A program made the translations under genes and the position numbers. The notes under the pieces are model-generated. The model saw only the letters and a list, made by a program, of their open reading frames with translations, made no database searches and was not told the DNA's origin. Positions 22,019 through 63,944 of a stretch of 64,000 bases of DNA are shown here, piece after piece (position 1 is the stretch's first letter; the number at the start of each line of letters is the position of its first letter). This DNA is from Symbiodinium sp. CCMP2592. Taxonomy: Eukaryota; Sar; Dinophyceae; Suessiales; Symbiodiniaceae. The DNA lies in the NCBI GenBank assembly GCA_905221615.1, contig CAJNDT010005312.1:393001-457000 (forward strand), given 5' to 3'.

Positions 22019-22122
22019 CCCTTACCGGTAAACCCCTAAACCCTAAACCCCCTAAACCCTAAACCCCCTTAACCCTAAACCCTAAACCCTAAACCCCCTA
22101 AACCCTAAACCCCCTAAACCCA
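22019..22122 (-). repeat. CCCTAAA-type interstitial telomere-like array
   Basis: About 13 near-perfect CCCTAAA units, with one-base insertions giving CCCCTAAA, directly upstream of the exon-like island at 22140. Confidence 0.95.
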
Positions 22123-22139: not shown

Positions 22140-22238
22140 ATCCCTGGAGCTCGGTGCTAGAGGTCTGTGGCTGCTCCCGCGCCTTCGACAACTATGGAGA
22201 CCGTATTTGCTGGTGTGACTCCTGCGACTTGGACCAGG
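22140..22238 (+). CDS. Exon-like island, cysteine motif copy 2
   Basis: Between TTGAATCCAG and donor GTTTAGAG (22239). Reads SSVLEVCGCSRAFDNYGDRI then CWCDSCDLDQ. It combines the CGCxRxFDxxGxR pattern of 20024 and the CWCDSC of 21016 in one exon. This suggests a duplicated zinc-binding-type module. The intron starts with TTTAGGG-like sequence. Confidence 0.5.
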
Positions 22239-22383
22239 GTTTAGAGTTTAGGGTTTTTTTAGGGTTTTGGTGATTTGTTCATGTTGTGTTTGTGTTTTTT
22301 GGGATTTTTGGTGTTTGCTGTAGGGTGTTTTAGGAGTTTTACGGTTTTTAGGGTTTCGGGCTTGATCATCTTCAGGACTCCAG

Positions 22384-23085: not shown

Positions 23086-23412
23086 GGCTCTATAGTTCCC
23101 GAAGAGCTCCAACGCAGATCAAAAAACAGGGACACAGGGCTGGCAAAGTTTAGATGGCAATATAGCAACGCGATTGAGACATAGAGTGCCCACCCCCCAA
23201 GATACGGAAACCTCTCCCAAAGCATAATATAGTGCAGGAACCTGAAGATAGGAGCCCTCATCAAACCCTATAAGCCCTTGTCCCAACGCCTCATGGCCTC
23301 AAGTCCCTGAAGCCTTCAAGGATTTCCATGCCACCAGGCCTCAGAAAACCCTGAACCCTTAACCCAATAACCCAAAGCCCGAAGCTCCAAGACCCTTCAA
23401 GGAATTCCATGT

Positions 23413-23512
23413 GGGTAGTTGTCAAAATTCAGGTCCCTGTTTGGCAAACGTAAAAATTGGTGCCGTATTATGAGAGGGACCCAAAAAGGGACCATAATTT
23501 TGACCAGCACCC
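23413..23512. mobile_element. MITE-like family B, copy 1
   Basis: Arms GGGTAGTTGTCAAAATT and AATTTTGACCAGCACCC with imperfect pairing. Exact 4-bp flanking direct repeat ATGT (23409-23412, 23513-23516). The inner sequence has GGTCCCTG and GGGACC steps typical of the family. Confidence 0.8.
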
Positions 23513-23522
23513 ATGTATCCAG

Positions 23523-24793: not shown

Positions 24794-24805
24794 CATTTGA
24801 GATAT

Positions 24806-25059: not shown

Positions 25060-25340
25060 AGTAGGCTTCTAAATCCTGAACCCTAAACGCTAAACATTAA
25101 GCCCCTAAACCCTGAAACTTGAACCCTTAACCCTATATAAACCGTAACGAATCACTCCCCAAATCGCTGCACAAACAATATGTTGGCGGCATCCTTTCGG
25201 TTACGAGCCTTCTCGCTGCACCTGCGCCATAATAGTGGGTATTTAGTATTTTTACCGGCGGGTTTGGGGTTTAGGGCTTTAGGGGTTTAGGGCTTTAGGG
25301 TTTTAGGGTTTAGGGTTTTTGGTAAATTAGAAGGGTAGTT
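25060..25340. repeat. Opposed telomere-like arrays
   Basis: CCCTAAA-type units at 25075-25140 followed by TTTAGGG-type units at 25258-25325, within the intron before 25362. Here the order is the reverse of that in most introns of the window. Confidence 0.8.
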
Positions 25341-25361
25341 TGGGGGTCTGGGTCGGTGCAG

Positions 25362-25418
25362 CTCGCCAGTCGCAGCTCACAGAGGGAAGTCGCGCAAAGC
25401 CACAATCCACAGGACTGG
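25362..25418 (+). CDS. Exon-like island, 19 codons
   Basis: Between GGTCGGTGCAG and donor GTTTTC (25419). Reads LASRSSQREVAQSHNPQDW, phase 0 at both ends. Followed by TTTAGGG-type repeats (25428-25480). Confidence 0.4.
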
Positions 25419-25786
25419 GTTTTCTGGTTTAGGGTTCTAGGGTTTAGGGTTTAGGGGTTTAGGAGTTTAGGGTTCTGGGTTTAGGGTTCTGGAGTTGGAA
25501 GTCCGTCGTCTCCTGAAGCCCGAGATACGGATTCGTACTCTCATGAAGCCCGAGATAGGAAGTACCCGAATGCCAAATGCTACGCCACCGACAACTCCAA
25601 ACCCTGCACCATAAACCCCAAAGTCCTATTCTTTGCATACTATAGGGCCCAAAGATTAATACAAGCAAAGCATGATGGGACCCAAAGCCCTCCTCAAATT
25701 ATTAAGGCCCCTATAATAAAGATCCCTTATAGACCCCTTTAGGAAACCGTTTAAAGGAATCCTATTCTAAGTATCAAGGCCCCTAT

Positions 25787-26258: not shown

Positions 26259-26285
26259 GTTTAGGGTTTAGGGTTTAGGGCTATG

Positions 26286-26378
26286 GGAGATACTTCCCCA
26301 AATCATAATAGTAATTCCTAATATAGGAAACCTACATCCCCCCCAATCATAATAGTAATTCCTAATATAGGAACCCTA
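26286..26378. repeat. Family P tandem pair
   Basis: Two adjacent copies of ATCATAATAGTAATTCCTAA followed by TATAGGAAACCTACAT. Related copies are at 28060-28125 and, reversed, at 54806-54848. Confidence 0.8.
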
Positions 26379-26609
26379 CATTCTACCATAAAGGTACTTT
26401 AGACCCTTAGGGAACAGCGGCTTTAGGATTCCGTTAAAAGGGCTCCTTAGAGGGATCTACCGGGTTCTATGAAGGGGGTGTGGGGTTTAGGGCTTTTCGG
26501 GTTTGTGGGTTTCAGGGATTCGGGTTCAAGGGTTGAGGGGTTGAGGGCTTAGAGTAAAAATGCACCTGAGTAAGATCGTCGTGGGTTTCCCTTCTCCCTA
26601 TGGACATAT

Positions 26610-26725
26610 CTCACAACCGTTTCGGCATTAACGAAGGAGATCTATGAAGGTGTGTCGGCCCGCAAGAAATTCGATGTCTTAACGCCGATTTCTGCGGATG
26701 GAAGGGAGCCCAAAAAAAGCAAAAA
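26610..26725 (+). CDS. Exon-like island
   Basis: Reads ALTKEIYEGVSARKKFDVLT then PISADGREPKKSKK. Strongly protein-like charged sequence. Boundaries not resolved; an internal GTGTGT near 26651 may be the real donor. Confidence 0.4.
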
Positions 26726-26874
26726 AGTCCTAAACCCCTCCGCCCTAAGCCCTGAACTCTGAAGGAGTCCTGAAGGGAGCCTGTGTGTTTGTTGCGGAAC
26801 CCCGAAGCTCTTCCATCGACAGCTTCAAACTTCAAGCCCTAAACTGCAGCCTTGCTAAACTCGTCTTGAGTTTA

Positions 26875-27035
26875 AGGCCTTAAACCCTAAACTCTAAACC
26901 CTAAAGCCTCAACCCTAAACCGGTTTTGGTGTAAGCCGACTTTGGCTGGATCATTTCGCAGTAAAGGGTCCACTGCACTTTACAATGATCCCTAAACCCT
27001 AAAACCCTAAACCCTAAAGCCCTAAACCCTTAAAT
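26875..27035 (-). repeat. CCCTAAA-type arrays
   Basis: Two clusters (26880-26920 and 26990-27035) of CCCTAAA units upstream of the exon-like island at 27042. Confidence 0.9.
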
Positions 27036-27041
27036 CCCCGA

Positions 27042-27124
27042 AGCTGAGGAGCAGCTTCTGGGATTCCAGCGAAGTCTTCGGCCAAGTCGCCGGGAATCTG
27101 GAGGTGCTTGGCACCCTTCTAAGG
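27042..27124 (+). CDS. Exon-like island between opposed telomere-like arrays
   Basis: Reads EAEEQLLGFQRSLRPSRRES then GGAWHPSK, and ends at GTTTAGGG (27125). CCCTAAA units precede it and TTTAGGG units (27125-27215) follow. Confidence 0.4.
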
Positions 27125-27720
27125 GTTTAGGGTTTTTGGGTCTAGGGTTTATGTAGGGGTTTAGAGTTATAGGGTTTAGGGGTTTAGGGTTAGAGGGTTT
27201 AGGGTTAGGGGATTCAGGGTTTTGGAGCGCTTCTAGTTCTATGGTTTTGGAACGCTTCTAGGGCCTTCTAGGGTGTTTAGGGATGTTTAGGGTGTCGCTT
27301 GAGTTTCTTCAAGGATTGTGTATATGGGCTCAATGATTGTACTAATGTTCACATCAAGTCGTATGATACGGTTTCACCCGTGCGGTTGCTGTATACAGGC
27401 CAGGTGAGATATTGTCGTTCTTTAAGGAGTATGATTGTTCAAATGACTACAGAGCCGTGTCATGTATCCGCCGGTTGCTATGCTTGGCAGTACTATGACC
27501 TGACATAGCCCTTGATTCACTGATCGTATAGTACAAGATACTACCATCGTCTCTAAACCCTAAACCCGAAGGCCTTACATGAGCGTATAGTCCCTGAATA
27601 CTATAGTATTCTAATGCAACATACCATTGTTAAGGCCCCTCCCTTGCAGTTTTGCATGAATTGAAGCCCTGCAGGAACTTGTGCTGGAAGACCCAGCGGC
27701 TCGGCTGGAGCTTAGACCTG

Positions 27721-28267: not shown

Positions 28268-28385
28268 GACCCTAAACCCTAAACCCTAAACCCTAAACCC
28301 TAAACCCTAAACCCCTAAACCCTAAACCCCTAAACCCCTAAACCCTAAACCCCTATATAAACCCTAAACCCTAAATCCTGAACCT
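28268..28385 (-). repeat. CCCTAAA-type array, longest perfect run
   Basis: About 13 CCCTAAA/CCCCTAAA units, six of them in perfect tandem. Interstitial, not at a contig end; unique sequence lies on both sides. Confidence 0.95.
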
Positions 28386-28400
28386 TAACCGTTTGACTAG

Positions 28401-28745: not shown

Positions 28746-28940
28746 AGACCCCCGGGAGGATCCAGAGAGTCGATCCCCCAATTTGGGGCCCTCTTACTAC
28801 TAAGGGTACTTTAGAGGAACCCCTATTGCGGGATCTACTCATAAACCCTAAACCCTACAACCCTACAGATCCCTTAAAGGGACCCGTAAAGGAACCCCCC
28901 AATAAAGGGATTTACTTTTTGGATCCTCCCGGATATCTGA
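28746..28940. mobile_element. Family O element with internal insertion
   Basis: Arms CCCAGACCCCCGGGAGGATC and GGATCCTCCCGGATATCTG. The left half matches the complete element at 19585. The middle is enlarged by CCCTAAA units and a second GATCCCTTAAAGG block. Confidence 0.65.
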
Positions 28941-28947
28941 AAACAAG

Positions 28948-29035
28948 GCTTTGCGGTCACAAGCCCAGATCCGGTTCAGCGGACTCGCGAAGCTGCAGCC
29001 GGGTTGCAGAAGAGTTGGAACTGTCTACGGATCCT
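28948..29035 (+). CDS. Exon-like island, frame uncertain
   Basis: After GAAAACAAG one frame reads ALRSQAQIRFSGLAKLQPGC. Another reads VTSPDPVQRTREAAAGLQKS then WNCLRILGPR up to a GTTGGG donor. Followed by about 250 bp of TTTAGGG-type repeats. Confidence 0.35.
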
Positions 29036-29370
29036 AGGGCCAAGGGTTGGGGCTTAGGGTTTAGGGCCAAGGGTTAGGGTTCAGGGATTAGGGTTTAGGG
29101 CCAGGGGATAGCGTTTAGGGGTTGGGGCTTAGGGCTAGTGGTTTGGGTTTAGGGCTAGGGGTTTGGTTTTAGGGGTTGGGGTTCAGGGCTAGGGGTTAAG
29201 GGTTTAGGGGTTAGGGTTTAAAAATTTACGGGTTTAGGGTTAGGGTTTCAGGGTTACGCTTTGAAGATTCTAGGGCTCGGGGTCAGGGTTAGGGTTAGGG
29301 TTGTTCAGGGTTCAGGGTTACGGGGTTACGGCTTCGGGATTCAGGGCTGAGGGATTCAAAAATAAATGCA
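29036..29370 (+). repeat. Degenerate TTTAGGG/GGTTAGGG-type region
   Basis: More than 25 G-rich heptamer variants (TTTAGGG, GGTTAGGG, GGCTAGGG, GTTCAGGG) at the 5' side of an intron. Confidence 0.85.
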
Positions 29371-32701: not shown

Positions 32702-32791
32702 TCCGATCCCTACGCGCCCAAAGCCGGCAAAAGAGGAGCTTAGCCTCTCCACACTCGAGATGCCCTCGGGCTCTGGAGTGCTGCAGGCACG
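32702..32791 (+). CDS. Exon-like island ending at GTTTAGGG
   Basis: Reads PPIPTRPKPAKEELSLSTLE then MPSGSGVLQA and ends at a GTTTAGGG donor (32792) that starts a perfect TTTAGGG array. It lies directly beside the 89-bp array. Confidence 0.45.
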
Positions 32792-32830
32792 GTTTAGGGT
32801 TTAGGGTTTAGGGTTTAGGGTTAGGGTTCC
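32792..32830 (+). repeat. TTTAGGG array at an intron donor
   Basis: Five TTTAGGG units in tandem beginning with the GT of the proposed donor. Confidence 0.9.
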
Positions 32831-37533: not shown

Positions 37534-37839
37534 CAAGTAACCCTGAACATGTAGATGTTTTGGGCTCCACGTCAACCCCAGACTGAACCCTAACCTTAAA
37601 AGTGGTCCCAAACCACGTGAAATTTCACGAAACCCCATCACGCAAACCCTAGGCACCTTGCTTCGAGCCCCCCCCCCAAAGCCCAATACACCTTGAACCC
37701 TACACGCAACACCCCCAACCCAACACCCTAAAGTGCTTTGCCCAAAACCCTAAACCCAAAACCCTAGACCAAAGACCATAATCATAAACCGAAAAGACCA
37801 AGACCCTAAACTACAAACCTCAAACTCCAAACCCCACAG

Positions 37840-37913
37840 CGATCGCTGCGAGGAGCCCTACTTCGGAGCTTCGCGGCTCTGTCGGAGGCGCCCGGGCTTC
37901 CACCGCGCAGGGG
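37840..37913 (+). CDS. Exon-like island ending at GTTTAGG
   Basis: After ACCCCACAG one frame reads RSLRGALLRSFAALSEAPGL then PPR. CCCTAAA units precede it and a GTTTAGGGGTTTAGGG donor region follows at 37914. Confidence 0.4.
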
Positions 37914-40603: not shown

Positions 40604-41450
40604 GAATATGTAGCAAACAAGACTCTGAGGTGCATGGCGCATAGTAATATGATCGGATCGCTGTCTTTACGAACAGCGAGAGCAAACAGCAATGAGGTCC
40701 GCGATGACACCACCAGTGACGGCGAGACGGATGGCGACTGGGGTTCCAATATTATGAGTTTCCGTATGGGTCCGAGTGCTCAACACTGCACAGGACTACG
40801 TCAGTAATAGAGCAGGCAAGCTTTAGCCCAGTCTCATGCCGTTCGCTCGGGACCGCGCTCATGACCCGACGTGAACTTGATGGGGGTAGTACCGGGCAAG
40901 TAAGCTACCCTACATTGCTACCGCCGCAAGGCCCAAGTTCCTGATTCTTCCGTGCTGTAGACCATTTCCCTAAACCCGAGAGCTTGAGCCCCGAACCCTG
41001 AACCCGAAGAAAAAAAGAAGAACCCCAAACCCGCTTGAAGTCCCCCGAGCCCTAAGCACCTGGAGGCCCGCAGTTTCGGGCCCCTTCGGGCTTCGTCTTT
41101 TGCATCTTGGGATTCGGACCTTTGATAATGGGGATTTAGGGTTTAGGGCTTATAGGGCTTGTCAACCGGTAAGAACCAGCAAAGCAATGATAACACCCTC
41201 CGTTTAAAGACCCCACAAGTATGAAATAAAGCAGCAGAAATCAGAGCCAGTAGCAAGCGATCATGAAGTGAACAAACATGAGCACTAGAATATAAGCACC
41301 AATGCAAATCGAAGCAAGCACATGGCACCCTAAGCTGCAAACACTACACCTCCTACCAAGAAATCCAAACCCGAAAACCCTGAACCCGGAAACCCTGAGG
41401 CTCCAAACTTAAACTCTACATCCTAAAGCCCTATGAGCCCGAGACCACAG

Positions 41451-47800: not shown

Positions 47801-50800
47801 CTGAACACGAAAGCCTAAACCCCGAACTCTCAAGCGCTAAACCCTCAACCCTAAACGCATGGAGTTGCTCAGCTCCAAGTCTTGTGAGACTGCTCAACCG
47901 TGCGTTGAACATCGCCAGGAGTAGTCTTTCCCATTATCGGTGCTGCCGGTCGCACTACGACTGCTGGACTTCTGTCGCTGTAGCTGTTGTTGCTGTTGTT
48001 AGCTACCACCCTTGCTACCTCCAGGTCGAAAGAAAAATGGTGCACCAGTTGTTGCAGCAGCGGTGCTATGATTGTTGCTCCGGATATGACTGGTTCTTTT
48101 TTCTACATGGTACTGTCATGGCCACTGCTTTTTTTCGCTTGCTCTGTCATATGCCTACTACGACCCCCTTGTGTTTGTGCGGAAGGAACGGCTACTTGGC
48201 TACGCAGGCAAGGCAGTGGGGCGCTTGCAAATCTCGCTCAATGACATTGATGATGGAAATGAAGATAATGATGATGATGTCTGTGAGAGCTCAAGTGGGA
48301 GCCTGAAGCTAGGCAAGGTTTCAGCTTGTCGTGCAGAGTGTCGAGTTGTGCCATTGCAGCAAGATGATTTCAATCAGACTGTCAGACGGTTTTTATGAGT
48401 CAGGAGGTTGTATCATTGCTACGATGCCTTATTGGTACCGCAAACCCACCCAGACTCCCGCACACACAAGGTCAAGGCTGGTCCAGGCAGCCAGCAACAG
48501 CTCCGGAAGCCTTTTTTCTCGCCCATCTAGGGGTGGAATCATAGGCATAGAAGCAAACTTCATGCGAAGTATAATGCTCCTGATCCTCAACTCTGAGACT
48601 TCAAAATCCTAAAGTCGCTAAACGCTACACCTCCTAAGAGAACTCGACTCGTGGCTTTTCACCTGGCATGGCAACACTTGCCTTTGGTTAGGAATGGAAG
48701 AATGGTAGTAATAGTAGTTATAATTATACCCCATTCTTCCATTCCCTACTAACCAAAGGTAAGTATAGATCCCTTATAGTAACCGTTATAGACCCCCGTA
48801 AAGGGAACCCTACTAACTAACCAGCAGGTGCTCGGAGGGATCATTGCCGACCGTTTGGGAGGCTACGATGCTACTTGCCTTCGAGCTCGGGCGATCCCTT
48901 TACGGTAGTTCCTTTTTGGGATTACCTTGAGCCACACAAAGGAACCACTTTGGGGCCTTAGGGTAGTGCAAGGGCTTTCACAAGTTTCAAAGTGGTTGAG
49001 TAGCGTGGTTCCTGCGAAATCATGCTACGCAGATTGCGAAAAAAGCCAGAGCCATTTCTGCCTCGCGGAAGACGGAAGCTGAGCAACTCATCTCCCTCAC
49101 AGTGCGCCAGGCCTTAAGATCAGGATCTCTACTATGATCTCTACTGCTGATGGACAAAATCCTGCATGACCTTAAGGACTCTAAACTATGGGAACTATGG
49201 TATATATTCCTTCTAATGGGTAATGCAGGCTTTTGTCCATCAGCAGTACCAAGGGCGGGGGGGGGGGGAGGGGAGTTGTATACCAGGGATCTACGTAGGC
49301 CTTCACTGGAGCCTCAAGTTGTCATCCCAGCTCTCCTACACCCCAAAGCCTCAAACCTCAAACCCTAAACCTTCAGGCTTGAGCTCTAAGCCCATGAACC
49401 CCCAATCCGGAACAGGAATCATAGACTAAGCGCGAAAGACGCCCTATAGACCCCTCTCAGGTGATGCTCTTTTGCATGCTGGCCTCTGGCGTCTGCTGCT
49501 TCCTCGCACCGGCTCTGTACCTTGCTCAAGAGAGCAGAAAGCAGGGTTTTACTTTTAGGTGGTTGTCAAAATTATGGCCCCTTTTTGGGTCCCTAATATA
49601 GTACGGCACTTAATATTCAGGGTTCCCAAAAAGGTACCATAATTTTGACAACCACCCATTTGGGGTTCCAGGGTTCTCGTAGAGTTCCTTCTCTAGGGTT
49701 CAGACGAAGACTCAGGCTTCGGGCTGGTAGGGTTCTGTAAGAGGCTTTGATTTTGGCCTTGACGGGTTCCTTCTAAGGAAACCCTAATAACCCCTTCTAA
49801 CCCTACCCCCCAAACTCCTAAACTCCGAAACCCTACAGACGCCTACTAAACTCTACACCCCATATACCCCAAACCCCCTAACCTCTAGACCCCTAAACCC
49901 TACATACACCTAAACTCGACCTTAACCCTGAATAACCTGCTTTTTTAGGGTTCCCTACTATGATTTCCTTGTATAAGTCCTTAAAAAAGGTAGGTTTGTC
50001 AGGGCTACTTAGAGCATCATGGGACTTAGTAAGTAGGTTATAATTGGGGTTATAAGTCCCCTAAGTGGGGTTATTCTAATTACAACCTACTTATAACCTT
50101 ACTTACTAAGTCCCATGAGCCTTCAAGTAAGATACACCCCATATACCCCAAACCCCCTAACCTCTAAACCCCTAAACCCCTAAACCCTACATACACCTAA
50201 ACTCGACCTTAACCCTGAATAACCTGCTGGTTACTAAGTCCCATGAGCCTTCAAGTAAGGTACACCCCAGAGCCCAGGATGGACTTCGGTAGCTTTGCCT
50301 TCGGCACGGCCTTCGTCGCTTTGGGGATGCTCCAAGGCTCCTTCTTGGACCAAGGGAAGCAGCTAAGTACCACTTTTTTTTTATTGGGGCTTAGGGATTT
50401 AGGAGTATACAGGGTTTAGGGTTTAGGAGTATACAGGGGTATATAGAGTTTAGGAGTTTAGGGTTCAGGGTTTGAGGTGCCAGAAGTGCTCCTCCCATTG
50501 CTGCATAAGCTTCTTTTCCGGATCAGCGCGTTTGCAGTAAGCCCCCCTTGCTGCACAGATTAGGCAGAGGTTTGACTCTGCCAGTACCTGAGGTCAGTTT
50601 GCACTGGGGTTCTTCTAACTGCTCCAAACGCTTCTTTAAGGGGATTGGGTTACCGGGTTTCTCGTCTCCATATTGGCATAGGGGCTTGATGAGTCCGCGT
50701 ATAGGGCCCCTTAGCAAGGCTGGTATTGTGTGAAAGGCGATTGGTGGTTGAGCGGCTCTCATGCCTCTCATTCGGTTGCCTTACTCGGTATCACGAGTTC

Positions 50801-53800: not shown

Positions 53801-56800
53801 CCAAAGGCTAAGACAGGAAATCTTGATCCGCAAAGCTCTGAAGCCGGAGCCCCAAACCCTACTAAACCCTGCCAAACCCCTTTATAGTACCTTTATAGAT
53901 CCCTTTCAGGAATCCTTGTGGATCCCTTTCAAGGAGCCCTAACCCAGGCTCGCCATGCTCGAGAAAGCCGGAGTCCTGGACACCGGCCGGGAGCAGAAAA
54001 AGTTAGCCTCACCGCTGCGAGCCGCTTGCGATTAGGGGAGGGGTTCTGGGATTTAGGATGTCTTCTTCTCATGCCGTTCCCTTCAACTCTGTTGTAATAA
54101 GTCCATTATGTGCTTGTCTTCCGAGTCTAGTTTTTGTAGTTTATTCCAGACTCTATGCTAATCTATCCTAGCCTATCCTATGGTTTTCTCTTCTATTCTA
54201 CTGAAATCTTGTCCATCCTATTCTTCTTCGGCGTCGGGCTACCTGGTTGCTTGCATGATGCATGTAAGCATGCAGGCATGTATGTATGTATGTATGTATA
54301 GATGTCTGCATGTATGTATTCATGGATGGATGTATGGATGGGTGACCATGCTGGGGTAGCCTTACCAAATGGTGCACTTCTCATGCAACATCATGCCGCA
54401 GATGAAGCTAGTCAAGCGGGCCCTTGTGGGTCTTACCTGTAACTTGCATGTGTGTGTATATATAGATATACACATTATACATAGTTGTAAATAAATAAAT
54501 ATATATATGTGTGTGTACACACACACACGTGTAGACATGTATGTAAAGAGATCCTGCAAGGTACACATGCTGGGTCTCGATTTCTCTGAATTCAATGACT
54601 AGCTAAGCACGAAATAACTTCCAAATTGGATCCGACGCCCACCTCCTTGCTAAGGTTTCCACCTTTCGCCTTTTTCACGCAGCCCTGCGTCGCTGTGCTT
54701 TTCCTCGCACACTTTGCACAGCCGCTTCTACTTCGTTGAGAGGTGTGAGGTGCAGGTTCAGGGTCGGGCGTTTCTTCTTTACACAAAGGGTCCTATGTAC
54801 CAATCTAGTAGAATGTAGGCTTTCCATATTAGGAATTACTATTATGCGTTTCTTCTTTAATGTAGGAACCTGATTAACAAACCCTGGGCCTATAACCCCA
54901 AAGTAGTAGGATTCATATAAGGAACCCTAAGAAAGGCCCAGGGTTTCTTAATCAAGTTCCTACATCAGGCATGTTCACTGCATGAATGTGGGCGAGCTTC
55001 GTAGAACCAGCAAAAGACTTGCTTGCCTCAGGTATCGGTTCTGGGCACCGCTCCTTTCAGTTGTGTTCAGTTGTGTCCCACAGCTATTCTGCGAGATCTT
55101 ATGCAGATGACTATGGCCAGGATTCGATAGCATTTTGTTTCGTGCTTCTTGCGATCACGGTATCATCGTGACCAAATCGGTCACAAGGCAGCCCTAATCC
55201 CGGAACTACAGACCCTAAACCCAAACCAAACCCCAAACTCCAAACCCTAAACTCTTGACCTAGGAGAAAAGCGCTTCAACAACAACAAACCCTACCCAAA
55301 AGTCACAGGTCAGGTTGGAGGTGTAGACATTTATCCTTGCAGAGGGCAGAGTGAGAGGATTTAGGGCTTCAGTTGGGGTCTGGTCTGGCTCATGCCACAC
55401 AGGAACTGGCAGCAATACTTTCTCGATTGGCTGCCGCCACTGGGCCGAGACGAGAAGGTTGAGTGGCATTTTTCTTTGGAATTTTCATGCCGCTGTAGTA
55501 GGCAGAGAAGGTGGGAAGGGCTCTTCTTTTGAACGTTTCTGGTTGTTTCTATGCTACATCAGGATACATCGTCGACGGACAGGAGCGTCGGTGTTTAGGA
55601 CTTCAGGATTAATGTGCCAGGGTCTCCTTTCCGGTCAGACGTAGCAATCTTCGGCATGCACACAAAGACATGGAAATGTGCTGCTTGTGATCGTAGGTCG
55701 TCACGAGTCTCCTCAGGAGGGAAATCTGCTGGCACCACCGAGGTTTTTCTACAATACGCGGCTGGGAGTGAGTCCCGAGGTGCAGCTATGTCAAACGGAT
55801 CCCCCATCTTAGGTGTTTTCCATAGAAGCAATGCGGTATTCCGATGGGACAGGAATTGCCTTTTGGTGCTGCACAGAAGGTATGTCAAGCCGTAAATACC
55901 ACAATCCCTCAAACCTATGCTAAACACCAAGAAATGTAGTCTATGATCTGATATATACAAAGCCCTCCGCCCAACAGCTTCTATCGTACTGATTCTGGAT
56001 CAACTCCTGCACCATCCAGAACAGGAAACATGAGTCACAGCTTAGGTTACTTCAGGCATTGCACTTGCGTCCCCTCGGCAGTTGTTCAGGTCCAGGTTGT
56101 GGGGTTGGCAGGGTAGTCTTGGTAACAAGCATGCTCATGAGTAGTTTAGTTTCTGCACAGTGGCAATAGCTTCAAGAATTACTACCATGTTTGCCATAAA
56201 TCTGTGTGGTTCTGGATACTATACTGAGTCTTTAGGAAGCCCTAAACGCCTAAACCCATGAGTTCATTGTTGTGTTTCTGGCCTTCATGCTGACGAGCAG
56301 GCCGCCGGTTTCCACATCGCGCTGATCACGCTGCTCCCTGACTCCAGTCGGGCATCTTTGGGTTTAGATCCCCTTTAAGGAACCCTTTAAAGGAACCCCT
56401 ACTCTATATTAGTTCTGAGGATTAGGGTTTGGGGTTTACGATTCACAGCATCCCCGCCCACAGAACCCAAAAGCACATCGAGAACATGCTCATTTTGTCA
56501 TGGCTTTTGGGGCCGGTCTAGCGATCCGAAATCCGTGGCTTCGCATTCACTTCGAAAGCCTGTTCCATGTGCTTCATGGATCTCACAGAGAGGCACTGTT
56601 GAAGTTTCTTGTTCAACCGAGTCAAGTCGTTTGATGTTTGAAGTACACCCGCAGTTCGTGTGAGGAAAACGACTGGGATATGAACAGCATCCACACCAGA
56701 AAAGACCAGAAACACACTGCCTGCGATCAAGGAACTGAAGAGCATCAACACCAGAAAGGCGGACGAGAGTAGCACACTGCTTACTATCAGGGAAGCATCA

Positions 56801-59800
56801 AGCCAAAACAGAGGAGCGAACACTGCTTGCGATTGGCCTGGCCTTGGCTTTTGTCTGTTTCAACTCCACACCGCATAATCTAAACGCCAATCACTTAACT
56901 TAAACAGCCGTGAAGCCCCTTGTAATTTCAAAACCCCTCCAAACCCAATAAATGCAATCACCCACCCGGTAAAGCCCTCTGAAAGCGTATTGCCAAAAAG
57001 CTATTTGAGCAAAAGCTCGTGTAAGACCCTTCAAGACTGCCGAAAAGTGCATCAGACCCTAGAATGCTGTATAAGGCCAAACACAATCCTATAAAAGCCT
57101 TGAAAGCGTCATATAACGATTAAGGGCCGTATCCAAGTAGATAGGACCTTCTTGAAGCCTGATAACACCCTGTAAGACCGTATACAACCCTAAAAGACCA
57201 GAAAAAAATAATCATTTATAAAGCTTTGTGCTCTTATAAACCCCTGTAAGACCCCAAATAGCTCCAGAAAGACTGTGCAACTGTTTCGTACTACTAAGCA
57301 CTTTACGAATATACACAACCCCAAAATCCTAAAACCCTTAATCCTAAGCCCTTATACACCCTAAGCCCTAAATCCATTAACCCTAAACCCTTATAAACCC
57401 TAGTTGCACGCCCTATACCCTTAAACCCTAACCCTAAATACCCGACAACCAAGAGAAGCTCCCGGCGGCCCAGGCTAGAGCTCCCGGCTCGCGCGCTGAC
57501 CAAAAACCTCCCTGAGCGGTGCTGGGCTCGGGTCGACTGTAGGCTTTACTAGGGTTTTGGGACAGTTTATATTCGCTCTTATTGGGCTCTTTAAGAGGAT
57601 CTTACCTACTAATATTTTTCAAAGGCCTCAAAAGCACCTCCGAGTTTGCCTGTATCCGAAAAGACCTAGAGTTTTAGGGTTCCCTATTATGGTTTCTATA
57701 TATAGTTCCTTGAGGAGGCAAGTCTTTTCGGCCACAGGTAGAGAACTCTTATACGGGTCGCCTTTTCATTTTTGGGGTTAGGGTGGAGGGCTTTTCTTCT
57801 GGCGGTTCGTGTTTATGTCCTCTCGGTTTTTAGGTTCAGGATGTAATGTAGGGTTGATCATGAAGAGTTTACGGTTCTATGACAGGGCTAGGGGTTTCAG
57901 TTCCACGGGGTGACGACATTATCGCCTCCGGAGCCTATCACTGTCTGGTTCTTAGTAGGGAATGGGGGAACGGGTTATGGGGACTACTATTGGAGATTAT
58001 ATAGTGACTACTGTAGGGATCCATTCCCCCATTCTCTACCAAGCACCAGGGAGATCAGGATTGACACGGCTTGACACAAGCCTGAGGCTGTTGGGCCGCG
58101 GTTTCTCGCTGCTCTCCTGCCGCAGGCATGGTTTGGGCTGTGTTTGGGCGAGCAGGACCTAAACTTCTGCACCCAAAACCCGAAGCACCGAAGCCAAATA
58201 GGAGCTGTCGTGCAGCGTTTCAGATGTATTCGCAGCTTTTCAGGGGCCCCTTCGCCGATAGGCATGTGTAGCTGTGATGGAAGTCACGTTTCATTTGGGT
58301 CGCAGTAAACTGTCACGAGGACGATTTTTGAAGAGCGATGTCGACTGTCTGGGCGGGGGGGCTTCCACGCCCACTTGGGGCTGACCGTGTTCTTCAGTCG
58401 ACAGCTTAGTCAAGGTATTTTGACTTGCTGTGTCAGCATGTCCTTGTGTACGGTCGCAGTCGCAGTGTCCTTACTCGTTGGGAACTACTGAAGGCTCTCT
58501 CACTTTGCGTGCGGCTCACTTCATCTACATATTATATGGAAAGGAGGCGACTGGGCTTAAAAAAGCTCAGCAGAGACCGTTGAAGCAACCACAAGCTTGC
58601 AACTCCTCGGTGCCGGTGACACAGCCAGACAGTTGTGGTCAGAGACTGACAGAGCCCCAAGAGATATCTCAGCCCATGTCATGGATCTAAGCTCACGGCT
58701 CGCAGTGCAGAGCCTCTGGAGAGCCAATCTTATTTACTTATAGCTCCGGTTCACAGAATCAGTTCGCTCCGAAACCTGAAACCGATTGTATCCCATCACC
58801 ATACGCACGAATTTATGTAGAACCGTTCGCATGCATGCACCACTGTAAAAATACACGCGCGTAGTCATGCATGACTGCCTGCATGCGGCACGACATCCGT
58901 CTATCCATCCCTCCATCCTTGTCCCTCCATCCATCCATCCATCCATCCCTCCGTCAATCCATCCAGCCACGCATCCATACACACGATTGCACATGCAACT
59001 ATGCAAATATCCGACTCCTGATACAGTAGCTGTTGATGTGGCTACCGCTCTTGTTGTTTCTTGAAACTAATACTGTGCGCTAGCCCTTGGAGGCTCATGT
59101 CACTGCAGGCGCGCGGTCGGGAGGGCTTCTGATCAGCAACCCCAAACCCTAAATCCCCCTAAACCCAAACCCTATACCTTGAACTCTAGCTCCTAGCAGT
59201 TTCTGATTTTGCAACAACATGTTTCTGGCCGGTTTAGGGTGTAGAGGTTGAGGGTTATGGGACTTACAGTTTTGAGGTTTTGGGTGTTCAGAACGTTGAG
59301 GGTGGGCCTTACCGCAGACAGAGAAAGCAGTCCGCGACAAGAGTTTTCCGCCGCGCTTCGAAATGCTTTTGCACGAGCTCATTCTCGTTTGGGACAGAGG
59401 GGGGATGCAGAAGTTCAAGGGTCCCTCCCATTCGAAGGTTTTGATACCAAGGCTGATATTCCTTCGGGCAGTGGAGCAACTGGACTGTCAGACGGTACAT
59501 GTTGCGAACACTTGCCGCGTAACCGGCGGTCATCGCAAGTCCCTTAGTATCTAGCGTCGCATTGACACAGCTTGTGCGAGATGTCTACCGCGAACCGGCA
59601 CACTAAGGTCCCAAGTACCGAACCATCACACACTCACAATTTACCAACCCGCATGTTCTCCCCCAGTGTTCAGTATTTTGAACTCCTGCTGAACCGCTTC
59701 TAGCTCTGACACAGACCCCGTGATCACTGGGTACTCTGGACCCTAAGGGTCATGATTTGGGGCTAGGCTGTTTCGGGCTCGTTGTGGAAACCGCGCATCA

Positions 59801-62243: not shown

Positions 62244-62308
<65 letters not shown>

Positions 62309-63944
62309 TAGCAGTAGGAGTGGGAGTGGGAGTGGGAGTAGGAGTAGGAGTAGTAGTAGTAGTCGTAGTCGTCGTCGTCGTCTTACCAGCAATCATTACT
62401 TTGAACAGCTAGTAACTGTACTAACAAACATCAGTAAGTATTTTGTCATTGCAATATCCATAGTAATGGTAATACTAACTGTAATTGCAATATGTGATAA
62501 AGTATGGCAGAAGTACTAAAGCATTGTTAGTATCAGTTACAAAAGAACAGTAACAATACCCTAAGCCCCCAAAGCAGTTCCTTTTCGGGGATCATATTTA
62601 GAATCCTATAAGGTGATCCCAAAAAGGAACTACTTTGGGGCCTATGGGTAAACCCTGAACCCTAAATCTCAAACCTTTAAGGGAACCCTAAACCCTAAAT
62701 TCCAAACCCTATAACCCCTAAACCCTTTAAAGGAACCCCTAAGCCAACTTCCCCTGGACCTCCAGCAGCAGCAGTTTGCCCTGAGAGAGGCGTGGAGTCG
62801 CCATGGGCTTTCACAACGATTTTCGGCATTTGCAAGGCCTCTGCCGATGCGAAGTTCGGGTTTTCGGTTAAGGTTTGAGGGTGTAGTGGGTTTCGGATTA
62901 GGGTTTAGGGCCGAATGACGTTTGGCAGCTGACGATTTCAGAGTTTTGCTGAATGTCTGTTTACTGTAAGCTCTGACCCGAAACCCCAAAACCCTCTACA
63001 CCTTGAAGTCCGTGGAAGTCGTTGCTGGCAGGTCAGCCAGGCATTCCATGCAGGCGGATACTTCGCAAACTACATGGCCCCGCACTGAGTGCCCAAAAAA
63101 CCCTGAGGCTTAACGATTAAAGGGGTTGGGGTTTTACTTACCTTTGTTCAGTAGGGAATGGAAGAATGGAAGTAGTAGTAGTTGTAATTGTACCCCATTC
63201 CTCCATTCCCTACTAACCAAAGGTAAGTTTAGGGTTCGGGGATTCGTTCTGGATGTCCAAAGTTTGTCCCGTTGCCTTTTGCCTCACCAAGGACCTCACT
63301 CGGCAGTACTCTGGGGCGCTGTCCGGCGTGGGCAACACCCTGGCCACCACGGCCGGCGTGGGATTCCCAAGGCGCGCACTTGAGGTAAACTCCGAACGAA
63401 ACCACCAACTTCTGCCTTGAAACAAGTGCTTCCATAACTGCCTATACTATGTAGGGGTTTCCTGGCTAGAAGTATAGTAGAATGGGCCTCAAAACCCTAT
63501 ATTCTAATGATTAGGACCCCTATGTTAGATCGCCGCTCGGGATGGGATCCGAAGGAATTCGGCAACTTAAGACGCTTGTGAGACAACGCGGGATGGCTGC
63601 AGCTCTGCCCGGAATGAGCATGACAGGAGCCGCTAAACCCCTGAAGCCTTAAGCCCCTAAACAGCTAAACCCGAAGCCTCTAGACCCTGAAACCCTTAAA
63701 CCCCTAAACCCCAAACCCTCAACCACAAAAGAACCCCAAACCCCTAAACACCCAAACCCTTAAACCCAAAACCCCGAAAAAACCCTGAACCCTTAAACCC
63801 TAAACCCAAAAGAAACCCAGGGTCGGCCGGATCTGTTGCAGGCTGGCCTCCTGGACGCTGGAGACCACGCAGGGGCAGTGGATGCCCCTTTTCATCTCCC
63901 TCGTCTCCATGAACCTCCTGGTGGGACCCCTTCTCATCTCATAA
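44805..63944 (+). CDS. MFS transporter, SLC17-like anion/phosphate or organic-anion type (spans introns)
   Basis: At least 12 short exons in the order expected for the SLC17 branch of the major facilitator superfamily. They give an acidic cytosolic N-terminus, TM2 with YLMSRYAMPG, motif A GGIIADRLGG, TM3 hydrophobic block, RLPSERSWASSISAIGSATG (the PxERS element), GPPLVANFGWKA, YLTGACCFGFSAVAWA, a late helix, QAFHAGGYFANYM|DLTRQY, SGALSGVGNTLATTAGV and TTQGQWMPLFISLVSMN, with TAA at 63942-63944. Phases agree at 49545/50271, 50366/51914, 52029/52324, 52395/52990, 62831/63032, 63076/63292 and 63371/63842. Four introns use GC-AG. Substrate cannot be told: SLC17 members carry phosphate, sialic acid, glutamate or nucleotides. 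TM1 and parts of the central helices were not located. Introns are 0.2-3 kb and packed with hairpin elements. Confidence 0.75.
45290..45475. repeat. CAT/ATC trinucleotide-rich tract
   Basis: Repeated ATC and CAC triplets, densest at 45325-45400. Long open frames on both strands here are by-products of the period. Confidence 0.75.
45480..46920. other. Transporter intron, TM1 exon not found
   Basis: Contains telomere-like heptamers and an AT-rich TATAGTATA/TATTATGG stretch at 46150-46205. A TM1-coding exon is expected here but I could not identify one. An open frame at 46279 (MSSSPAELWCDMPQSPKRP) is noted without support. Confidence 0.35.
46924..47037. mobile_element. MITE-like family G, copy 2
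   Basis: Arms CCCAGAGACTCCAATATTCC and GATATTGGAGTCTCTGGG. Centre TTATAGTAGGATCCTTAATA. Confidence 0.85.
47080..47174 (+). CDS. Transporter exon, TM1-TM2 loop and TM2 start
   Basis: Between GCGAGATGAAG and donor GTTTAGGG (47175). Reads LLPTLTMELQLSSSDQGYLM then SRYAMPGSKLQ. The P..ELxLSxxxxGYLxSxYxxG pattern is that of MFS proteins just before motif A. Confidence 0.6.
48676..48764. mobile_element. MITE-like family E, copy 2
   Basis: Arms ACTTGCCTTTGGTTAGGAAT and TTCCCTACTAACCAAAGGTA then AGT. Loop (TAGTAA)(TAGTAG)TTATAATTATA. Confidence 0.85.
48828..48869 (+). CDS. Transporter exon, MFS motif A
   Basis: A 42-nt exon between AACCAGCAG and a GC donor (GCTACT). Reads VLGGIIADRLGGYD, the GGxxADRxGG motif A between TM2 and TM3. 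The GC donor gives phase 0, which joins directly to VMLFCML of the next exon. Confidence 0.7.
48893..48968. mobile_element. MITE-like family F, copy 1 (diverged)
   Basis: CGGTAGTTCCTTTTTGGGAT and AAAGGAACCACTTTGGGGCC then TTAGGGTA. The left end is worn. It starts 24 bp after the motif A exon. Confidence 0.7.
49142..49250. mobile_element. Hairpin element, single copy
   Basis: Arms TACTGCTGATGGACAAAATC-CTGCAT and ATGCAGGC-TTTTGTCCATCAGCAGTA, about 26 paired bases per arm around a 55-bp loop. Confidence 0.8.
49461..49545 (+). CDS. Transporter exon, TM3
   Basis: Between CCCCTCTCAG and donor GTTTTAC (49546). Reads VMLFCMLASGVCCFLAPALY then LAQESRKQ, a hydrophobic helix ending in PAL as in SLC17 TM3. 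Phase 1 at the 3' end matches the next exon. Confidence 0.7.
49558..49657. mobile_element. MITE-like family B, copy 6
   Basis: Arms GGTGGTTGTCAAAATTATGG and CCATAATTTTGACAACCACC. It begins 12 bp after the TM3 exon, inside the intron. Confidence 0.85.
49854..50268. repeat. Local duplication of a 90-bp CCCTAAA-rich segment with family C fragments
   Basis: TACACCCCATATACCCC through CCTTAACCCTGAATAACCTG occurs at 49854-49941 and again at 50133-50229. The block TTACTAAGTCCCATGAGCCT-TCAAGTAAG occurs at 50102-50131 and 50231-50260. A family D hairpin (49934-49997) and a family C element (50005-50129) lie between the two copies. Confidence 0.85.
50005..50129. mobile_element. MITE-like family C, copy 3
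   Basis: Arms CTACTTAGAGCATCATGGGA-CTTAGTAAG and CTTACTAAGTCCCATGAGCC-TTCAAGTA around TTATAATT-rich sequence. Confidence 0.8.
50271..50366 (+). CDS. Transporter exon, TM4 region
   Basis: After TACACCCCAG, entry with two bases completing the GAG codon of the previous exon. Reads PRMDFGSFAFGTAFVALGML then QGSFLDQGKQL, up to donor GTACCA (50367). Matches the TM4 segment (..ALRxLxGxxxG..P) in position. Confidence 0.65.
   Translation, partial: SPGWTSVALPSARPSSLWGCSKAPSWTKGSS
50380..50478 (+). repeat. TTTAGGG-type array at intron start
   Basis: About nine TTTAGGG/TTAGGAGT variants directly after the TM4 exon. Confidence 0.85.
50821..50873. repeat. 30-bp direct repeat pair
   Basis: CGTTTACATCTAGTTGTTTT then CG, repeated at a spacing of 30 bp. 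Confidence 0.9.
51833..51909. mobile_element. Family A remnant abutting an exon
   Basis: TTGGGGCCCTTATAGTAAGG, ATCCTACTATTTAGGG and CCCCTATTTTCGGAA are family A internal and right-arm sequence; the left arm is missing. The next exon begins 5 bp further. Confidence 0.65.
51914..52029 (+). CDS. Transporter exon, PxERS motif and TM5
   Basis: After CCCCCACATAG, phase 1 entry. Reads ADMRALFAVPRLPSERSWAS then SISAIGSATGLLLCSSAT up to donor GTTTGT (52030). P..ERS.A.SI...GS.TG is the hallmark after TM4 in SLC17 proteins. Confidence 0.75.
52324..52395 (+). CDS. Transporter exon, PPLVANFGWKA
   Basis: A 72-nt exon, phase 0 at both ends, between GAGGATTGAG and GTGTGC. Reads GAASTQVQGNAAGPPLVANF then GWKA. 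The P.L...FGW segment precedes TM6 in SLC17 proteins. Confidence 0.7.
52878..52970. mobile_element. MITE-like family F, copy 2
   Basis: Arms CCCTAAGGCCCCAAGGTAGT-TCCTTTT and AAAAAGGAACTACTTTGGGG-CCTATGGG. Loop CATATTTGGAATCCTATAAG. It ends about 20 bp before the TM6 exon. Confidence 0.85.
52990..53053 (+). CDS. Transporter exon, TM6
   Basis: After GATGTTGCAG in phase 0, reads TRLYLTGACCFGFSAVAWAT then M, up to donor GTTTGAGG (53054). It continues GWKA of the previous exon into a hydrophobic helix ending in WA, as in SLC17 TM6. Confidence 0.7.
53948..54031 (+). CDS. Possible transporter exon, central loop
   Basis: After TAACCCAG one frame reads MLEKAGVLDTGREQKKLASP then LRAACD, suitable for the charged loop between TM6 and TM7. 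The phase-matched frame reads SPCSRKPESWTPAGSRKS instead. The choice needs transcript data. Confidence 0.4.
54262..54340. repeat. TGTATG/ATGGATG tetranucleotide tract
   Basis: TATG and GATG repeats, followed at 54440-54545 by AT and GT repeats (TATATATGTGTGTG). Confidence 0.9.
54859..54965. mobile_element. MITE-like family K, copy 2
   Basis: Arms AATGTAGGAACCTGATTAAC-AAACCCTGGGCC and GGCCCAGGGTTTCTTAATCA-AGTTCCTACAT. Centre AAGTAGTAGGATTCATATAA. Confidence 0.9.
54970..56280. other. Transporter intron, weak open frames only
   Basis: A + frame at 55614-55895 (WKCAACDRRSSRVSSGGKSA) and an overlapping - frame are both protein-like, but neither has clear splice sites. Not called. Confidence 0.3.
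56301..56355 (+). CDS. Possible transporter exon, TM7 region
   Basis: After TGACGAGCAG reads AAGFHIALITLLPDSSRAS before GTTTAGAT. Amphipathic helix of suitable position and a LLP turn as in SLC17 TM7. CCCTAAAC units precede it (56241). Confidence 0.4.
56717..56840. repeat. Degenerate repeat of ACACTGCYTGCGATC
   Basis: Three related blocks at 56717, 56773 and 56821, each with ACACTGC followed by a GATC- or TATC-like element. It lies under a hydrophobic antisense open frame (56518-56823), which I consider unproven. Confidence 0.5.
57650..57738. mobile_element. MITE-like family D variant
   Basis: Arms CCTGTATCCGAAAAGACCT and AAGTCTTTTCGGCCACAGG around AGGGTTCCCTATTATGGTTT. Confidence 0.75.
57956..58042. 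mobile_element. Family E variant (E2), copy 2
   Basis: Arms AGTAGGGAATGGGGGAACGG and CCATTCCCCCATTCTCTACC around TATGGGGACTACTATTGG. Confidence 0.75.
58902..58975. repeat. CCAT tetranucleotide tract
   Basis: About 14 CCATC/CCATCC units with interruptions. Confidence 0.9.
60326..60420. mobile_element. MITE-like family F, copy 3
   Basis: Arms TACCCATAGAGCCCAAAGTA-GTTCCTTTTTGGG and CCCAAAAAGGAACTGCTTTG-GGGCCTTAGGGTA. Confidence 0.85.
60439..60510 (+). CDS. Possible transporter exon, C-terminal-half helix
   Basis: After CCTCGAAG reads SLLLGPGLCTAFGAALSSDF. G...G..AALSSD resembles the P...G...AGxxxD element before the next exon's REAW segment. 3' end unresolved. Confidence 0.4.
60548..60646. 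mobile_element. Hairpin element (family R)
   Basis: Arms GAGACTGGGTTGTCCTTTGG and CTTAAAGGACAACTCAGC around CCCTACTATTTTGTAGGAAC. Confidence 0.7.
61111..61190. mobile_element. Family J element
   Basis: Arms GTGATGAAGGTAGGTAGG and CCCACCTGCCTTCATCCCAC around AAGGATCCCTTATATAAGGA. Same ends as the interrupted copy at 24462. Confidence 0.75.
61250..61340 (+). CDS. Possible exon, basic proline-rich (weak)
   Basis: Reads KPSPQQVVRKQASPKHDKTK then PPTPKLKSCIDFK. Protein-like, but not expected inside a transporter at this point, and without clear splice sites. Confidence 0.2.
61858..62388. repeat. About 530-bp AGN trinucleotide tract
   Basis: Almost entirely AGT, AGC and AGG triplets in domains: AGT-rich (61860-61920), AGC/AGT mixed (61920-62220), AGG/AGC (62245-62310), GGAGT (62310-62345), TCG (62360-62385). 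It gives long open frames of serine, alanine, leucine or valine on both strands, which I do not regard as genes. Confidence 0.95.
62557..62650. mobile_element. MITE-like family F, copy 4
   Basis: Arms ACCCTAAGCCCCCAAAGCAG-TTCCTTTT and AAAAAGGAACTACTTTGGGG-CCTATGGGT. Loop TTAGAATCCTATAAGGTGAT, nearly identical to the copy at 52878. Confidence 0.9.
62766..62831 (+). CDS. Transporter exon, REAWSRHGLSQRF helix
   Basis: Reads FALREAWSRHGLSQRFSAF and ends before GCAAGG, a consensus-type GC donor giving phase 0. R...S..GLS..F matches the R+...xIG segment between TM8 and TM9 of SLC17. 5' end within a CAG run. Confidence 0.6.
63032..63076 (+). CDS. Transporter exon, QAFHAGGYFANYM
   Basis: A 45-nt exon after GTTGCTGGCAG, phase 0, ending before GCCCCG (GC donor). 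Reads VSQAFHAGGYFANYM. Followed in frame by DLTRQY of the next exon, giving the aGxxxNxxD...Y element of SLC17. Confidence 0.7.
63136..63229. mobile_element. MITE-like family E, copy 3
   Basis: Arms ACTTACCTTTGTTCAGTAGG and CCCTACTAACCAAAGGTAAG then T, loop (AAGTAGTAGTAG)TTGTAATT. It fills most of a roughly 215-bp intron between two transporter exons. Confidence 0.9.
63292..63371 (+). CDS. Transporter exon, SGALSGVGNTLATTAGV
   Basis: After TGCCTCACCAAG reads DLTRQYSGALSGVGNTLATT then AGVGFP, ending before GCGCGC (GC donor), phase 2. The YxGxLxGxxNTxxTxxG pattern is the strongest SLC17 signature in the window. Confidence 0.8.
63630..63812 (-). repeat. CCCTAAA-type array before the last exon
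   Basis: About 18 CCCTAAA variants in the last intron, ending 30 bp before the acceptor at 63841. Confidence 0.9.
63842..63944 (+). CDS. Transporter terminal exon
   Basis: After ATCTGTTGCAG, one base completing the arginine codon. Reads LASWTLETTQGQWMPLFISL then VSMNLLVGPLLIS and TAA at 63942-63944. W...F.......NxxG is the last transmembrane segment of the family; the short C-terminus is unusual. Confidence 0.75.

What the first reader, a model, noticed from the sequence alone, without database searches (positions are those of the whole stretch)
22019..63842. Intron ends built from opposed telomere-type repeats: GTTTAGGG donors and CCCTAAA upstream of acceptors
At 22238, 26258, 27124, 32791, 37913, 41544 and 47174 the proposed exon ends exactly where a GTTTAGGG-type run begins, so the donor GT is part of the repeat. 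Many introns carry CCCTAAA runs close to their 3' end (before 22140, 26142, 27042, 28401, 50271, 53948, 63842; also before 7061, 12678 and 14601 in the first genes). In the pre-mRNA the two runs are complementary and could pair, bringing splice sites together, or could be ends of an intron-creating element. Counter-examples exist (intron before 25362 has the reverse order; the island at 34443 follows TTTAGGG).
Basis: partly seen in the sequence, partly recalled or inferred. Interest (0 to 1): 0.85.

Follow-up and report, generated by a model that had tools for sequence, protein, structure and literature searches.

The report
Telomere-like repeats point outward from exons
In this alga-like genome, short stretches resembling chromosome-end DNA tend to lie in one orientation before exons and in the opposite orientation after them, perhaps because splicing tolerates that arrangement best, but they are not shown to be the cut sites themselves.

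Summary
The repeat runs are real. All seven proposed donors begin GTTTAG. Leaving exons aside, neighbouring CCCTAAA-to-TTTAGGG gaps are short (15 of 21 at most 234 nt); TTTAGGG-to-CCCTAAA gaps are never under 180 nt (p = 8e-5). Twenty other pieces of the 1.1-Gb genome agree at 100-250 nt (10 versus 1 pairs) but not over all gaps (p = 0.68).

On 75 kinesin and protein-kinase exons found by homology, nearest upstream runs are 27 CCCTAAA-type to 16 TTTAGGG-type, nearest downstream 13 to 31 (p = 0.0018; exact heptamers alone p = 0.13). So the polarity looks genome-wide, but it is a bias, not a rule.

The strong form fails: none of the 75 match ends meets a GTTTAGG donor within 40 nt, and the window's proposed exons show no Pfam match or + strand coding signal beyond GC-matched controls. 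A GT at the start of a TTTAGGG run is automatic.

Best explanation: splice-compatible filtering of abundant interstitial telomere-like repeats. An introner-type origin is not excluded. The decisive mirror whole-genome count was asked 14 times and never answered.

The parts
452..570 (.). island between C- and G-type runs
4289..4335 (.). island between C- and G-type runs
22003..22121 (.). C-type (CCCTAAA) array left of island 22122-22236
22122..22236 (.). island (proposed exon 22140-22238)
   Evidence: no Pfam match
22237..22264 (.). G-type (TTTAGGG) run right of the island, at proposed donor 22238
25127..25261 (.). island between C- and G-type runs
26259..26280 (.). G-type run at proposed donor 26258
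26259..27041 (+). proposed intron whose first 22 nt pair with its C-type 3' end in the predicted fold
   Evidence: MFE -273.3, z -4.55, 0 of 20 shuffles as stable
26990..27034 (.). C-type array near proposed acceptor 27042
27035..27122 (.). island between C- and G-type runs
27123..27222 (.). G-type array at proposed donor 27124
28269..28388 (.). C-type array before proposed acceptor 28401
28856..29049 (.). island between C- and G-type runs
29043..29353 (.). long degenerate G-type array
32791..32828 (.). G-type run at proposed donor 32791
37811..37911 (.). island, GC-rich, between C- and G-type runs
40978..41134 (.). island between C- and G-type runs
46490..46557 (.). island between C- and G-type runs
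49901..49943 (.). short island between C- and G-type runs
50188..50411 (.). island (proposed exon start 50271) between C- and G-type runs
55252..55359 (.). island between C- and G-type runs
57439..57672 (.). island between C- and G-type runs
59171..59232 (.). island between C- and G-type runs
62726..62897 (.). island between C- and G-type runs
25260..25488 (.). counter-example: G-type runs on both sides of proposed exon 25362

Best explanation
The genome carries very many degenerate interstitial telomere-type repeats. Around exons they tend to one polarity on the coding strand: CCCTAAA-type upstream, TTTAGGG-type downstream. Most likely this is filtering by the splicing machinery of repeats that arise or insert in either orientation. 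A TTTAGGG run contains TTTAG|GG, which fits the dinoflagellate AG|G acceptor rule, so upstream of a real acceptor it would offer decoy acceptors and tend to be removed. A CCCTAAA run has no G and no AG and is C-rich, so it can sit in, or serve as, the AG-free stretch before the acceptor. Downstream of a donor, G-rich runs are tolerated or even help, and they do not need to be the donor. Shown here: abundance, a polarity bias around homology-supported exons, and no GTTTAGG-type donor at 75 homology match ends. Inferred: the selective reason, and that the window's own islands are exons.
For: Abundance: TTTAGGGTTTAGGG has 242,927 forward and 244,814 reverse places in 1.098 Gb, against 209 and 224 for the reversed-letter control. 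That is about 1 per 2.25 kb, and the window has 30 in 64 kb, so the window is typical. Polarity without exons: p = 8e-5 in the window. In 20 genome pieces chosen without regard to the repeats, C..G distinct pairs at 100-250 nt number 10 against 1 G..C (p = 0.006). Polarity with independent exons: first 43 kinesin exons, arrays of at least 3 hits within 400 nt, upstream C 9: G 0, downstream C 1: G 5, p = 0.002. All 75 exons: 27:16 and 13:31, p = 0.0018; arrays of at least 3 hits 12:3 and 3:8, p = 0.010. Exons with hits on both sides: C-exon-G 14, G-G 7, C-C 6, G-exon-C 1. Close to the exon (within 75 nt upstream), arrays of at least 3 hits are 5 C: 0 G (distances). Window islands are GC-richer (54.3%) than short G-to-C gaps (46.0%) or the rest (49.2%), as exons would be. 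Acceptor AGG 93-97% in 5 of 7 tabled species: PMC10666404 passages.
Against: Exact heptamers alone give 9:5 and 5:9, p = 0.13. The last 12 kinesin exons fetched go the other way upstream (1:4) with 1:3 downstream. Kinase exons alone give p = 0.08, 0.39 and 0.50 for at least 1, 2 and 3 hits. In the genome pieces, gaps over all lengths do not differ (p = 0.68), exact pairs at 50-110 nt show no bias (7 versus 9), and degenerate clusters give permutation p = 0.048, 0.25 and 0.32. Counting single hits, C to G upstream is 12:8 within 75 nt and 15:8 beyond (distances), so there is no sharper scarcity of TTTAGGG-type hits next to the acceptor, which decoy avoidance predicts; only arrays of at least 3 hits show it. 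Decoy avoidance also explains the upstream side better than the scarcity of C-type runs downstream, where CCCTAAA (no GT, no AG) should be harmless. Exon ends are HMM match ends, not transcript-mapped. I lowered this from 0.5 to 0.45 on recounting the 12:8 and 15:8.
Confidence: 0.45

Rival explanations
1. Introner-type origin. The runs are the terminal inverted repeats of a non-autonomous DNA element that makes introns; because GGGTTTAGGG...CCCTAAACCC is its own mirror, either insertion direction gives the same intron ends.
For: The geometry is that of a terminal inverted repeat. It also explains both sides of the exon, upstream and downstream. Introners with inverted repeats at both ends are reported in dinoflagellates (PMC7789003 and PMC10666404, passages). 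Hairpin elements of about 105 bp abound in the window.
Against: In the self-comparison rows printed, window array loci match each other only in heptamer-rich stretches. Inter-island intervals often carry several runs of one kind (order string). None of 75 homology match ends meets the run as a donor. The three introns printed contain no CCCTAA or TTAGGG.
Confidence: 0.22
2. Functional pairing. The complementary runs pair in the pre-mRNA and bring distant splice sites together.
For: In proposed intron 26259-27041 the first 22 nt pair with the 3' C-type run (z -4.55, 0 of 20 shuffles as stable).
Against: One intron of unverified borders, and pairing follows from complementarity alone. Of 75 homology-supported exons only 28 have any hit on both sides within 400 nt, 14 of them C-exon-G.
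Confidence: 0.08
3. Telomerase-healed breaks. Exon pieces were capped outward like chromosome ends and later rejoined, leaving TTTAGGG...CCCTAAA joints as introns.
For: CCCTAAA-island-TTTAGGG is the orientation of a linear piece capped at both ends; dinoflagellate telomeres are TTTAGGG (PMC11453091, passages).
Against: Runs start 8 to 390 nt from match ends rather than at exon borders; several runs per interval; no joint shown.
Confidence: 0.07
4. The window's islands are not exons but the loops of hairpin elements whose arms are the C- and G-type runs.
For: No Pfam match over cut-off in six frames of 20-64 kb; no + strand coding signal beyond GC-matched controls; hairpin elements are common here.
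Against: The polarity recurs around kinesin exons and in the pooled set; islands are GC-rich.
Confidence: 0.1
5. Chance plus choice of thresholds.
For: Several thresholds were tried and some results are not significant: p 0.68; p 0.25 and 0.32; p 0.08 to 0.50; exact heptamers p 0.13; first 20 kb of the window p 0.21 to 0.67.
Against: Three data sets point the same way: window, other genome pieces at 100-250 nt, homology exons.
Confidence: 0.08

Closest known systems
Introner elements of dinoflagellates (Amoebophrya, Prorocentrum cordatum, Polarella, Effrenium)
   Same: Introns with inverted repeats at both ends; the P. cordatum criterion is inverted repeats of 8-20 nt and direct repeats of 3-5 nt within 30 bases of intron ends (PMC10666404, passages).
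   Different: Here the repeat is a degenerate telomere-type heptamer run, 8-390 nt from homology match ends, with no shared element body seen in the rows printed and no target duplication shown.
Interstitial telomeric repeats
   Same: TTTAGGG is the telomere unit reported for several dinoflagellates (PMC11453091, passages); here tandem, degenerate, internal.
   Different: Here the 14-mer has about 488,000 places and a bias in orientation with respect to exons, which I did not find described in seven searches of the held library.
Intronic G-runs after donors and AG-free tract before acceptors (recalled, vertebrate splicing)
   Same: G-rich after the donor, C-rich and AG-free before the acceptor.
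   Different: Here the signals would be supplied by one repeat in two orientations; no splicing effect was tested.
Euglenid nonconventional introns with pairing ends (recalled)
   Same: Complementary intron ends could bring borders together.
   Different: Those lack usual splice sites; the three introns resolved here look spliceosomal (AG|G acceptors, GA or GC donors).

Membership tests
Introner element | inverted repeats of 8-20 nt within 30 nt of both intron ends | tested here: inconclusive
   Met by proposed intron 26259-27041 if its borders are right; 0 of 75 homology match ends have a GTTTAGG-type string within -12 to +40 nt.
Introner element | many introns share one sequence body | tested here: inconclusive
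   Self-comparison of the window: in the rows printed, array loci match only in heptamer-rich stretches; other hairpin families do share bodies but are not tied to the runs. Only 64 kb compared.
Introner element | target-site duplication or empty orthologous site | not tested
   Borders unknown; the genome has no relatives in this collection.
Interstitial telomeric repeat | internal tandem copies of the telomere unit | tested here: met
   reversed-letter control about 1,100 times lower.
Interstitial telomeric repeat | unit identical to this species' own telomere | not tested
   Chromosome ends of G000 were not examined; TTTAGGG is reported for other dinoflagellates.
Dinoflagellate spliceosomal intron | AG|G acceptor, GT/GC/GA donor | tested here: inconclusive
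   Three kinesin introns read by hand give GA, GA and GC donors with AG|G acceptors, borders ambiguous by a few shared bases. For the window's proposed introns, 5 of 10 AG acceptors are AG|G.

The most novel reading that the evidence does not exclude
A large class of introns in this lineage was created or is maintained by telomere-type repeats: one heptamer, in opposite orientations, marks both intron ends in many thousands of introns, either as the terminal inverted repeats of a telomere-derived introner or as telomerase-made joints that the spliceosome now removes.
Probability: 0.12. Interest if true: 0.88.

Novelty: new variant of a known kind. Interest (0 to 1): 0.5.

Why it matters
If the polarity holds on transcript-mapped introns, dinoflagellate introns offer a genome-scale natural experiment. 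One simple repeat, present in both orientations, would be kept or lost according to whether it mimics a splice site, which would measure what the unusual dinoflagellate spliceosome (GC and GA donors, AG|G acceptors) tolerates. If the runs are instead ends of an element, they would add a telomere-derived route to intron gain.

Tried and rejected
Pfam scan of six frames of 20-64 kb with X at stops: no match over the curated cut-off. PDB phmmer of + frames, 22-37 kb and 50-64 kb in all three frames (37-50 kb not done): 8 hits up to E 0.1, all in or beside the 61863-62363 hexamer repeat. A guess that 63842-63920 is a SWEET transporter exon came from memory and found nothing. A codon-usage gene finder marked 22 exons on + of the first 21 kb and only weak or low-complexity segments beyond, on either strand. 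GC-rich 90-nt windows as exon stand-ins (72 of them) gave only a weak asymmetry: left C 22, G 16; right C 16, G 20. A 24-base heptamer pattern found 17 contigs in viral contigs with long open frames and few heptamers; not pursued. Rfam and tRNA scans: nothing.

The whole-genome pattern CCCTAAAN{80,110}TTTAGGG has 49,598 places, control 644. By my arithmetic from the counts, independent placement at window density would give about 67,000, so without the mirror pattern this number is not evidence of polarity. The mirror was asked 14 times and never answered.

Exon choice: 43 exons at 40 loci out of 89 kinesin matches first, 20 of 137 kinase matches, then 12 more kinesin exons at 10 loci chosen after seeing the first result; five of those 12 matches contain stops. 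I favoured short matches, by hand.

Full report
What is in the window. The window is 64 kb of a 1.098-Gb, 5,383-contig assembly (G000:C4916:393001-457000). Exact TTTAGGG occurs 75 times and CCCTAAA 107 times, many in degenerate tandem runs. The window is ordinary for its genome: the tandem 14-mer has 242,927 + 244,814 places genome-wide, about one per 2.25 kb, against 209 + 224 for the reversed-letter control, and 30 in the window. Size, GC, and the plant-type repeat fit a Symbiodiniaceae-like dinoflagellate such as Effrenium voratum (assemblies 1.1-1.3 Gb, GC 50.7%, introns peaking at 1 kb; PMC11114475, passages and section 14). That is a fit, not an identification: the three assemblies in that paper have 3,881, 11,607 and 38,022 scaffolds, none of them 5,383.

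All seven donors are followed by GTTTAG. Exact CCCTAAA precedes six of the ten acceptors listed, the hexamer CCCTAA two more (26142, 53948), and looser forms the last two. Of 12 coordinates examined, two do not follow AG, and of the remaining ten, five are AG|G. A GT at the start of a TTTAGGG run is automatic, because every unit contains GT and an exon end must be put at an allowed dinucleotide; so the exact donor coincidence carries no weight by itself.

Order of runs, leaving exons aside. Between neighbouring exact loci, C-to-G gaps are 46-234 nt in 15 of 21 cases and G-to-C gaps are never below 180 nt (21 cases); Mann-Whitney p = 8e-5. With degenerate clusters a label permutation gives p = 0.0056, 0.0010 and 0.0012 for at least 2, 3 and 4 hits over the whole window; in the first 20 kb alone there is no effect (p 0.35, 0.67, 0.21; few clusters). 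Twenty pieces of up to 10 kb taken elsewhere in the genome (189 kb) agree in part. At 100-250 nt there are 10 C..G against 1 G..C distinct pairs (p = 0.006). But neighbour gaps over all lengths do not differ (CG n 28, GC n 30, p = 0.68), exact pairs at 50-110 nt show no bias (7 versus 9), and degenerate clusters at 50-250 nt give 25 versus 16, 10 versus 7 and 7 versus 5 (permutation p 0.048, 0.25, 0.32; Mann-Whitney p 0.11, 0.05, 0.014). Five of these twenty pieces hold no exact heptamer at all.

Are the window's islands exons? Not shown. C-G islands (17) are GC-rich (54.3% against 49.2% overall and 46.0% for 7 short G-C gaps), but on the + strand neither open-frame length (p = 0.47) nor codon score (p = 0.34) exceeds GC-matched controls. 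The - strand shows a weak trend (p = 0.06 and 0.07). No frame has a Pfam match over the cut-off. In the first 17 kb, where coding evidence on + is strong, the four strong runs (at least 5 hits within 200 nt of an exon) all fit the pattern: three C-type upstream and one G-type downstream. With at least 2 hits the count is 4:2 upstream and 2:2 downstream (18 exons).

Independent exons. Kinesin (PF00225, 89 matches) and protein kinase (PF00069, 137 matches) matches give strand and position without reference to the repeats. In the first 43 kinesin exons the nearest array of at least 3 hits within 400 nt is C-type in 9 of 9 upstream cases and G-type in 5 of 6 downstream cases (Fisher p = 0.002). 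Twenty kinase exons alone are not significant (p = 0.08, 0.39, 0.50 for at least 1, 2, 3 hits). Twelve further kinesin exons do not follow the upstream rule (1:4 upstream, 1:3 downstream). All 75 exons at 70 loci together give 27:16 upstream and 13:31 downstream (p = 0.0018), 15:6 and 5:13 for at least 2 hits (p = 0.008), 12:3 and 3:8 for at least 3 hits (p = 0.010), and 9:5 and 5:9 for exact heptamers (p = 0.13). Exons with hits on both sides number 28: C-exon-G 14, G-G 7, C-C 6, G-exon-C 1. Clear examples are the P-loop exons in L077 and L051 and the exon in L075, with C-rich DNA before and G-rich DNA after; L053 is a counter-example with C-type runs on both sides.

Not the donors. A GTTTAGG-type string within -12 to +40 nt of the match end occurs in 0 of 75 exons. 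In three introns with both exons in one locus I read GA, GA and GC donors and AG|G acceptors by hand; the borders are ambiguous by a few shared bases. Such donors are reported for dinoflagellates (GT only 24-37% in Polarella and three Symbiodiniaceae; PMC10666404 Table 2, passages).

Mechanism. The simplest account is filtering. TTTAGG fits the AG|G acceptor rule and would be a decoy just before a true acceptor; CCCTAAA has no G at all, is C-rich and AG-free, so it is tolerated or useful there; G-rich DNA after a donor is tolerated. Against it: single hits upstream run 12 C to 8 G within 75 nt and 15 to 8 beyond, so the scarcity of G-type hits is not sharper near the acceptor; only arrays of at least 3 hits show that (5:0 within 75 nt, 7:3 beyond; distances). 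It also explains the upstream side better than the downstream side, which an element with inverted ends would explain equally well. I therefore hold filtering at 0.45 (0.5 before this recount) and the introner origin at 0.22 (0.2 before), and chance at 0.08 (0.05 before), since the p = 0.68 had been left out. Pairing of the ends is possible (intron 26259-27041, z = -4.55), but that follows from complementarity. Telomerase-healed joints are a speculation.

Literature. Seven searches (introner with dinoflagellate; TTTAGGG with intron and dinoflagellate; telomere with introns and splice sites in Symbiodiniaceae; introner with telomere; telomeric repeat with splice site; dinoflagellate with interstitial telomere; a broader Symbiodiniaceae search of which 15 of 643 papers were listed) showed no title or abstract start that describes oriented telomere repeats around exons. 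I saw passages of PMC11453091, PMC7789003, PMC7023079, PMC9860276, PMC10666404, PMC11508785, PMC11782384 and PMC11114475 and one section of the last. Roy et al. 2023 on dinoflagellate introners is known to me only through PMC11453091 and may bear on this; I did not see its text.

Verdict. A modest polarity of telomere-type repeats around exons that appears to be genome-wide; the claim that intron ends are built from them is not supported by homology-defined exons. The decisive mirror count and transcript mapping could not be obtained.

Noticed in passing
23401-23514, 24689-24799, 31171-31256, 40495-40603, 43278-43382, 49555-49669: A family of palindromic elements of about 105 bp, typically beginning TGGGTGGTTGTCAAAATT, in both orientations.
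   Followed up: partly
20537-20645, 24801-24906, 33026-33109, 36430-36489, 41577-41685, 51835-51900: A second hairpin family beginning TGGGAGTTTCCGAAAAT in its full copies; at 24301-24906 several hairpin units sit close together.
   Followed up: partly
27711-27802, 19583-19705, 24301-24414: Palindromes of 92-123 bp, folded energies -31.5 to -37.2 kcal/mol.
   Followed up: no
18102-19060, 25677-25787, 32106-32697, 53879-53945: Family built of TATAGATCCCTTTAAAGGAACCC-like units, including an 89-bp tandem array at 32203-32697.
   Followed up: no
50017, 50105, 50233, 43871, 44025; L051 on both sides of a kinesin exon: Sequence ACTAAGTCCCATGA or its mirror, in L051 part of an inverted-repeat element just before and again after the exon, and at window 50233 just before proposed exon 50271; a candidate introner end.
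   Followed up: partly
49901-49941 and 50188-50228: A direct copy of 41 nt with a C-type run before it, 287 bp apart.
   Followed up: no
L035 (GC 0.30), L034, L037, L038, L039: Some contigs of the assembly hold none or one exact heptamer in the piece taken and differ in GC, possibly from other organisms in the culture.
   Followed up: no
600-690, 1290-1300, 3010-3030, 4145-4160: ATGCATGC-type motifs recur in the spaces between coding stretches of the first 4 kb.
   Followed up: no
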